Position numbers and translations under genes: made by a program. A model generated the notes under the pieces. That model had not been told where the DNA came from. It was given only the letters and a program-made list of their open reading frames with translations, and did no database searches. Below, piece by piece: positions 47,384 through 47,888 of a DNA stretch of 64,000 nt (positions are counted from its first letter, which is position 1; every line of letters starts with the position of its first letter). Origin of the DNA: Planctomycetota bacterium (GTDB lineage: Bacteria; Planctomycetota; Planctomycetia; Gemmatales; Gemmataceae); the NCBI GenBank assembly GCA_016191165.1, contig JACPPF010000045.1, positions 21,702-85,701 on the forward strand. The letters run 5' to 3'.

Positions 47384-47888
47384 AATCCAAAACTCGAAAT
47401 CCGAATCTCGAAATCCGAAACAAAATCGAAAATCGAAAAAGAAAACCGCCGCGCTATTCCGCTTTTCGCACGATTGAACCGAAAATATTCATTAATTCAA
47501 CACTTTCTTGTATCAATGCATCGCGTTCTTCATTCAGCGCCCGCAAATCGCTCGTATCGATCAACCGGCGCCAATACCGGGACTCCTTGGCTTCCTTGCG
47601 CGAAATCTTGACATGCATCACGAAGTCCTTCTTGCCGAGCGATTCGTTCGCTTCGATGTAGTTTGCGCCCACGGAACCGGATGACCGCACCAGCTGCCTC
47701 ACGTCTTCAAAATTGCAGATCGTCCGTGGCAGACGCTTCACGAAATCCCGAACGCGCCGTGCAAACAAAAACGTTCGCTCCTCCAAGTCGTAGGGTTTCT
47801 TGCCCGGCTGATCCATGGCGAAGTCGCCGTGTTTTCGGATTTTGAATTTCGAATTTGTTTCGGAATTCGAAATTCGATTTTCGGATTT
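47384..47888. mobile_element. Candidate inverted-repeat-bounded element F carrying a four-helix-bundle gene
   Basis: Left AATCCAAAACTCGAAATCCGAATCTCGAAATCCGAAACAAAATCGAAAATCGAAAA; reverse complement of right AATCCGAAAATCGAATTTCGAATTCCGAAACAAATTCGAAATTCAAAATCCGAAAA. Confidence 0.6.
47454..47816 (-). CDS. Four helix bundle protein (S23 / IVP family)
   Basis: QLVRSSGSVGANYIEANESLGKKDFVMHVKISRKEAKESRYWRRLI. Confidence 0.9.
   Translation of the reverse strand: MDQPGKKPYDLEERTFLFARRVRDFVKRLPRTICNFEDVRQLVRSSGSVGANYIEANESLGKKDFVMHVKISRKEAKESRYWRRLIDTSDLRALNEERDALIQESVELMNIFGSIVRKAE

What the first reader, a model, noticed from the sequence alone, without database searches (positions are those of the whole stretch)
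47384..47888. Second four-helix-bundle gene with the same architecture but unrelated repeat sequence
A paralogous gene lies between the BatA-like and DUF58 genes. It is flanked by tcgaaatccgaa-type tandem units on the left and their inverted copies on the right. The right end abuts the DUF58 stop codon (47889-47891). The arm sequence has nothing in common with element E (agttcagagt), yet layout, gene family and placement are the same. Architecture conserved while sequence varies points to a type of element rather than a single repeat family.
Basis: partly seen in the sequence, partly recalled or inferred. Interest (0 to 1): 0.8.

Follow-up and report, generated by a model that had tools for sequence, protein, structure and literature searches.

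The report
Mobile S23 gene between matched repeats
The gene is a small mobile DNA element: one protein gene between mirrored arrays of a short repeat, a kind known mainly from bacterial ribosomal RNA genes, and here it is found between ordinary genes in at least 14 bacterial phyla, with each protein family carrying its own repeat sequence and even its own repeat length.

Summary
Window 47384-47889 is a TIGR02436/PF05635 (S23, 'four helix bundle') gene flanked by period-7 arrays (CGAAATC type) that are mirrored across it. All 8 such genes in this genome have heptamer arms, each with a different heptamer. In 76 loci from this and related genomes plus 80 loci from at least 14 phyla, mirrored period-7 arms are the rule (random placements 1/1500). 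The repeat tracks the protein and not the host. The unit here is 1.7 mismatches from same-clade units in other phyla and 3.7 (random level) from the other units in its own genome. Eight-mer and six-mer units fall in two protein clades. The site is empty in three same-genus genomes. ORF-less hairpins with the same units are common, and orthologous sites swap one heptamer hairpin for another. Nostoc flagelliforme plasmids give base-level occupied/empty pairs: identical S23 inserts in diverged copies of one gene with an 11-bp target duplication, an ORF-less insert with a 6-bp duplication, and one with a 131-bp target deletion. It works like the 23S rRNA intervening sequence (Coxiella's also has heptamers before S23p). 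The S23 protein probably recognises its own arms; the inserting enzyme is unknown.

The parts
47384..47453 (+). outer arm next to BatA: period-7 array (AATCCAAAACTCGAAATCCGAATCTCGAAATCCGAAACAAAATCGAAAATCGAAA...), 3' side of the element in gene orientation
   Evidence: inverted partner of 47825-47889 (65 nt, 75% complementary)
47454..47816 (-). S23 / 23S rRNA IVP-family four-helix-bundle gene, 120 aa
   Evidence: PF05635 1.8e-12, TIGR02436 2.8e-19; homologue of PDB 2rld and 2gsc; more than 8000 relatives
47825..47889 (-). outer arm next to DUF58: inverted period-7 array (TTTCGGATTTTGAATTTCGAATTTGTTTCGGAATTCGAAATTCGATTTTCGGATTTT), 5' side of the element in gene orientation; abuts the DUF58 stop codon
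47889..48824 (-). DUF58 gene, upstream neighbour; same-genus relatives have it without the element
44521..47385 (-). BatA-like gene, downstream neighbour (probable ATG near 47376)
16749..17392 (+). element E between rpoB and rpoC: S23 gene (16813-17184, start assumed from homology) with GAGTTCA-type heptamer arms 16749-16775 and 17370-17392; same architecture, other unit
   Evidence: relatives' rpoB-rpoC spacers lack it
6090..6185 (.). ORF-less heptamer hairpin (ATTGCAG type)
9735..9829 (.). ORF-less heptamer hairpin (TGGTGAG type)
23378..23484 (.). ORF-less heptamer hairpin (AAAAAGG type)

Best explanation
The feature is one copy of a very widespread small mobile element: an S23 (four-helix-bundle, IVP) gene enclosed by two mirrored arrays of a short repeat, usually 7 nt. 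It is the same kind of element as the S23p-bearing intervening sequences of 23S rRNA, but inserted between ordinary operon genes. Shown here: the architecture; the pairing of protein clade with unit sequence and unit length; empty sites; ORF-less derivatives with the same units; turnover at the same site; and, in Nostoc, base-level insertions with short target duplications. Inferred: the S23 protein (a pentameric ring in its solved relatives) recognises the arms of its own family, most likely as a hairpin or single strand read in 6-8-nt steps. It guides them, in cis for full elements and in trans for ORF-less ones, to a staggered break in a target. There a host polymerase, reverse transcriptase or repair enzyme copies the element in. 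Variable duplications (6 and 9-11 bp) and a target deletion suit break repair or target-primed copying better than an ordinary transposase. The copy then survives where transcription continues and reading frames are not cut, which means codirectional spacers abutting a stop codon.
For: All 8 copies in this genome have heptamer arms, each with a different unit. 156 loci, period 7 dominant, in at least 14 phyla. In the 464-kb sample every inverted heptamer pair with a loop over 200 nt encloses an S23 gene. Unit follows protein: Mantel r 0.71; unit length 2 changes on the tree against a shuffled mean of 5.96; new 8-mer and 6-mer members found by protein search; L008 unit 1.7 mismatches from same-clade units in other phyla against 3.67 from other units in its own genome, random 3.69. 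Empty site at BatA-DUF58 in G001, G003, G005. Same-site turnover in genomes with about 86-98% identical flanks. Nostoc flagelliforme: 4 occupied and 3 empty copies of one gene, inserts without a difference over about 550 bp while flanks differ by roughly 3-9%, 11-bp direct repeat TGGAGTTGGGT. ORF-less insert with GGTCAA duplication against 3 empty sites. 131-bp target deletion at another site. dN/dS 0.03-0.07 in the four pairs where dS could be estimated. S23 codirectional with both neighbours in 46 of 53 loci. Coxiella IVS: S23p ORF preceded by GACAGAT heptamers (PMC4990558).
Against: S23 proteins have no recognisable catalytic site and no binding experiment was found. The base-level insertions are in cyanobacterial plasmids and in a distant S23 clade (about 37% identical to the query), not in the clade of the finding. 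The four identical Nostoc inserts could be one insertion spread by short-tract gene conversion between plasmids. The 8-mer clade is not pure (10 of 21 new relatives have 7-mers). L001 has weak arms. Arm mismatches show no G.U excess (88 G.U to 82 A.C; 129 to 151), so pairing at the RNA level in the sense strand is not visibly selected.
Confidence: 0.72

Rival explanations
1. The element is a non-autonomous passenger (MITE-like) moved by an ordinary transposase in trans; S23 is cargo and the heptamer arms are merely its terminal inverted repeats.
For: ORF-less copies are abundant; direct target duplications exist; plasmid neighbourhoods contain ISL3, ISAzo13 and IS200/IS605 transposases.
Against: Duplication length varies (6, 9-11 bp) and one insertion deletes 131 bp of target, unlike the fixed duplication of a DDE transposase. 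Unit sequence and length track the S23 protein, which a passenger has no reason to do. S23 is under strong purifying selection.
Confidence: 0.17
2. An RNA-level intervening sequence: the mirrored arms are kept so that RNase III can cut the element out of the operon mRNA, and S23 binds or protects that stem; movement is rare.
For: 23S rRNA IVSs with S23p are excised by RNase III (PMC4990558). S23 is codirectional with its operon. The arms form one long stem in the predicted RNA, z = -2.98.
Against: No G.U bias among arm mismatches in gene orientation. ORF-less hairpins turn over at the same site with a different unit. Insertions disrupt coding genes in Nostoc.
Confidence: 0.3
3. Generic heptanucleotide slippage repeats in spacers, with S23 genes sitting there by chance.
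For: Heptamer repeats are over-represented in many bacterial genomes and polymerase slippage has been proposed (PMC4692102, PMC4679880). ORF-less arrays are common here.
Against: Background 1/1500 against more than half of S23 loci. Mirror-image unit order (22.2 against 15.9 with shuffled units). Clade-specific unit and unit length, conserved across phyla.
Confidence: 0.03
4. Short templated addition, telomerase-like: at a double-strand break both 3' ends are extended with the same short unit by an S23-associated polymerase or reverse transcriptase and then joined, which makes the mirrored arrays directly.
For: Explains mirrored arrays with the same unit on both sides, a unit that differs from site to site, replacement of one unit by another at the same site in sister species, variable duplications and deletion, and unit length as a property of the protein.
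Against: Arms of the finding's clade share more than the heptamer across phyla (inner ACAAATTC segment), so arms are inherited with the element. No template RNA or polymerase was identified.
Confidence: 0.12
5. A host-useful operon spacer (attenuator, insulator, or toxin-antitoxin-like gene) that is maintained for regulation and not for spread.
For: Vertical retention at orthologous sites (L001/L022, L003/L042, L004/L056/L057) with dN/dS 0.03-0.07 where dS could be estimated.
Against: No fixed neighbour genes. Sites are empty in close relatives. Insertions break genes in Nostoc. E. coli expressing Coxiella S23p showed no growth effect (PMC4990558).
Confidence: 0.08

Closest known systems
23S rRNA intervening sequence (IVS) with S23p ORF (Leptospira, Coxiella, others)
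   Same: Same protein family (PF05635/TIGR02436); ORF in sense orientation; terminal inverted repeats forming a long stem (28 bp in Coxiella); heptameric direct repeats (GACAGAT, 2-3 copies) just before the ORF in Coxiella (PMC4990558); total about 430-500 nt; patchy distribution and suggested horizontal transfer.
   Different: Known IVSs sit in 23S rRNA helices 9, 25 or 45 and are discussed as rRNA fragments; here the elements sit in protein operons in at least 14 phyla, with a unit matched to the protein clade. RNase III excision was not testable here.
Cyanobacterial heptanucleotide repeats (STRR; Mazel et al. 1990, from memory) and Nostoc/Xanthomonas GGGGATT/GGGAATC repeats (PMC4692102)
   Same: Heptamer arrays, often in convergent (mirrored) pairs: 70 pairs in X. 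campestris and 75 in X. axonopodis (PMC4692102). In Nostoc and Calothrix plasmids such arrays flank S23 genes (AAAATTC, GGGTGTA). X. campestris also has S23 protein XCC0516 (2gsc).
   Different: That literature treats them as simple repeats or G-quadruplexes, reports no link to S23 genes, and generally found no association with mobile elements. I could not check the flanks of XCC0516 itself.
REP/BIME elements with RAYT genes
   Same: One small gene between inverted repeats, and many ORF-less hairpins with matching repeats in the same genome.
   Different: RAYT is a Y1 tyrosine transposase; S23 has no such domain and the arms here are tandem 6-8-mer arrays.
Diversity-generating retroelement protein Avd
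   Same: The classic S23 clade (L001) gives a weak hit to NF033474 Avd (2.9e-5; 24.3 bits against a cut-off of 80); both are four-helix-bundle families and Avd works with a reverse transcriptase (from memory).
   Different: No reverse transcriptase, template or variable repeat was noted beside the loci; below the Avd cut-off.

Membership tests
PF05635 / TIGR02436 S23 (four helix bundle) proteins | profile match above curated cut-off | tested here: met
   47.9 bits against 33.8; 69.3 against 24
23S rRNA intervening sequence | S23 ORF between inverted repeats | tested here: met
23S rRNA intervening sequence | insertion in a 23S rRNA helix | tested here: not met
   lies between BatA and DUF58 genes
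23S rRNA intervening sequence | excision from the transcript by RNase III | not testable with these tools
   long stem predicted, no RNA data
Autonomous transposon with DDE or Y1 transposase | encodes a transposase domain | tested here: not met
   only PF05635
Autonomous transposon with DDE or Y1 transposase | fixed-length target duplication | tested here: not met
   6 bp, 9-11 bp and a 131-bp deletion in Nostoc relatives
Mobile element in general | occupied and empty sites in close relatives | tested here: met
   own site; base level, Nostoc
REP/RAYT | RAYT Y1 transposase beside REP palindromes | tested here: not met
   protein is S23
Diversity-generating retroelement | Avd with reverse transcriptase and template repeat | tested here: not met
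   Avd model not hit by the finding's protein; flanking genes are BatA, DUF58 and MoxR

The most novel reading that the evidence does not exclude
A previously unrecognised class of mobile element in which a non-enzymatic four-helix-bundle protein specifies the length and sequence of its terminal repeats (6, 7 or 8 nt by protein clade) and drives homing-like insertion, with a host polymerase extending both ends of a break with the same unit. On this reading, rRNA intervening sequences and cyanobacterial heptamer repeats would be special cases.
Probability: 0.25. Interest if true: 0.92.

Novelty: new variant of a known kind. Interest (0 to 1): 0.78.

Why it matters
S23p and the rRNA intervening sequences have been known for decades without a function, and heptanucleotide repeats of cyanobacteria and xanthomonads without an explanation. 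Tying them into one family of mobile elements, with a protein that matches its repeat in sequence and in length, makes both questions testable: does S23 bind its own heptamers, and does that move the element? It would also be one of the smallest mobile elements that carry a gene, and one without a transposase.

Tried and rejected
G.U against A.C test for RNA-level pairing: no bias. Rfam: only chance-level hits. AlphaFold model from 21 sequences: pLDDT 51, not used for fold search. Literature searches found no paper linking S23 genes outside rRNA with heptamer arms; only open-licence papers are held. Slippage alone and chance rejected by the background test. The near-identical Calothrix plasmid copies are one 3.5-kb homologous block (97%), so no evidence of movement. 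L071's period-6 signal is read as coding sequence and was left out.

Full report
What is there. The gene at 47454-47816 (-) encodes a 120-aa S23/IVP protein (PF05635; TIGR02436), homologous by sequence to the solved 2rld and 2gsc; the X. campestris protein is a ring of five four-helix bundles (PMC4990558). It sits between BatA and DUF58, with MoxR next, all on the minus strand. Its flanks, 47389-47453 and 47825-47889, are tandem arrays with period 7 (and 14), mirror images of each other (65 nt, 75% complementary). The right array ends at the DUF58 stop codon.

It is a type. This genome has eight PF05635 loci. All eight carry period-7 arms with a different unit each: AGTTGTC, GGGGTTA, GTGCTGA, AATGAAG, AAAAGGA, GAGTTCA (element E, rpoB-rpoC), CAATTGA and CGAAATC (this finding) (L001 weak). 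In 76 loci from this genome and relatives the left arm matches the reverse complement of its own right arm (mean score 21.1) far better than that of another locus (9.0), and lag 7 dominates all other periods. A scan of species genomes with the finding's own clade returned 80 loci from at least 14 phyla (Planctomycetota, Patescibacteria, Bacteroidota, Desulfobacterota, Omnitrophota, KSB1, Nitrospirota, Elusimicrobiota, Verrucomicrobiota, Armatimonadota, Chloroflexota, WOR-3, Zixibacteria, Gammaproteobacteria and others). Their flanks carry the same kind of arms, mostly CGAAATN with CTAAATN and CAAATNN variants. Random placements in the genome reach both criteria once in 1500.

The repeat belongs to the protein. 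Unit similarity correlates with protein similarity (Mantel r 0.71; 0.48 in the Planctomycete set; 0 of 2000 permutations), though only weakly within the multi-phylum clade alone (r 0.19, 12 of 2000). The finding's unit is 1.7 mismatches from units of its clade in other phyla but 3.67 from the other units in its own genome, where random heptamers give 3.69. Four loci have 8-nt units and two have 6-nt units; they form two clades, 2 changes on the tree against 5.96 for shuffled labels (0 of 500). Searching 399 genomes with the 8-mer clade gave 11 new 8-mers among 21 close relatives and none among 9 distant ones; the 6-mer clade gave two further copies in one genome with (CGTAAT)n and one mixed 6/7 array. 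One genome (G001) holds 6-, 7- and 8-mer elements side by side, so host slippage is not the cause.

It moves. At the finding's own junction G001 (DUF58 89% identical), G003 and G005 have no S23 gene and no heptamers; G068 has an ORF-less AGTGGTC hairpin there. At rpoB-rpoC only this genome has S23, while three other genera have heptamer hairpins or arrays with other units. ORF-less hairpins with CGAAATC arms are frequent in some relatives. In genomes of one genus the same spacer holds different things: S23 with CAGGAGT (G005, G001), an ORF-less CAGGAGT hairpin (G006), an ORF-less TAGTCCG hairpin (G003), or none (G000); a second site holds S23 with TAGTCCG (G003) or an AGTTGTC hairpin (G005); a third a CGAAATC hairpin (G003) or an AGCTGTC one (G005). 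G003 and G005 flanks are about 86-98% identical.

Base-level insertion. Nostoc flagelliforme plasmids hold four occupied and three empty copies of one gene. Between the first three occupied copies the interval of about 550 bp containing arms and S23 has no difference, while the 2-kb flanks differ by roughly 3-9% overall; the fourth (L339) has the same arms and junctions. Empty GTTTGGAGTTGGGTAAAAAAGG becomes GTTTGGAGTTGGGT-insert-TGGAGTTGGGTAAAAAAGG, a direct repeat of 11 bp (9 if GT is counted to the insert). An ORF-less relative in a methyltransferase gene duplicates GGTCAA against three empty sites, and one in alkB replaces 131 bp of target. Variable duplication plus deletion argues against a simple transposase.

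Mechanism. Shown: architecture, co-variation of protein and unit, mobility, ORF-less relatives, codirectionality with the host operon (46 of 53 with both neighbours known), purifying selection (dN/dS 0.03-0.07 in the four pairs where dS was not saturated). Inferred: S23 recognises its own arms and helps a host enzyme copy the element into a staggered break. The lack of a G.U excess among arm mismatches speaks against sense-strand RNA pairing as the main constraint, so recognition as DNA, or recent copying of one arm from the other, is favoured; unit order is mirrored, although the register was chosen as the best one.

Known kin. The 23S rRNA intervening sequence is the closest relative: Coxiella's has S23p, a 28-bp terminal stem and two to three GACAGAT heptamers before the ORF, and RNase III cuts it out; mobility by the ORF had been suggested (PMC4990558). 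The finding fails the defining rRNA location, so it is not an rRNA IVS but works like one. The heptamer repeats of Nostoc and Xanthomonas are published without a link to S23 (PMC4692102).

Limits. Nearly all planctomycete and multi-phylum data are draft genomes. The base-level proof is in a distant clade. No binding or RNA data exist. The four identical Nostoc inserts could also have spread by short-tract conversion. Open-licence literature only.

Noticed in passing
L244:271-374 (G003) and L041:2478-2638 (G005): Two further dispersed elements, about 104 nt (palindromic, dozens of copies on both strands) and about 161 nt (dozens of copies), are repeated across G003 and G005 at about 80-98% identity.
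   Followed up: no
L135, L136, L137, L141, L144, L147, L150 (rpoB-rpoC spacers): Several related genera carry other small, mutually different genes (HEPN- and nucleotidyltransferase-like by eye) between rpoB and rpoC, so this spacer is an insertion hot spot.
   Followed up: no
L056 and L057: S23 orthologues in G003 and G005 both contain an in-frame TGA, yet dN/dS over the match is 0.03.
   Followed up: partly
L084, L095, L098, L105, L079 (DUF58-BatA spacers): Unrelated hairpins of other families sit at the same DUF58-BatA junction in relatives; L084 has an AGTTTTC heptamer array.
   Followed up: no
window 17185-17369: Element E is longer than the other copies: between its S23 gene and its right arm lies a further stretch of about 185 nt that may hold a small ORF.
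   Followed up: no
L335:2330-2420 (Nostoc sp. PCC 7120 plasmid gamma): The right-hand heptamer array (CTTCTGC type) recurs alone in many Nostoc, Tolypothrix and Calothrix plasmids.
   Followed up: no
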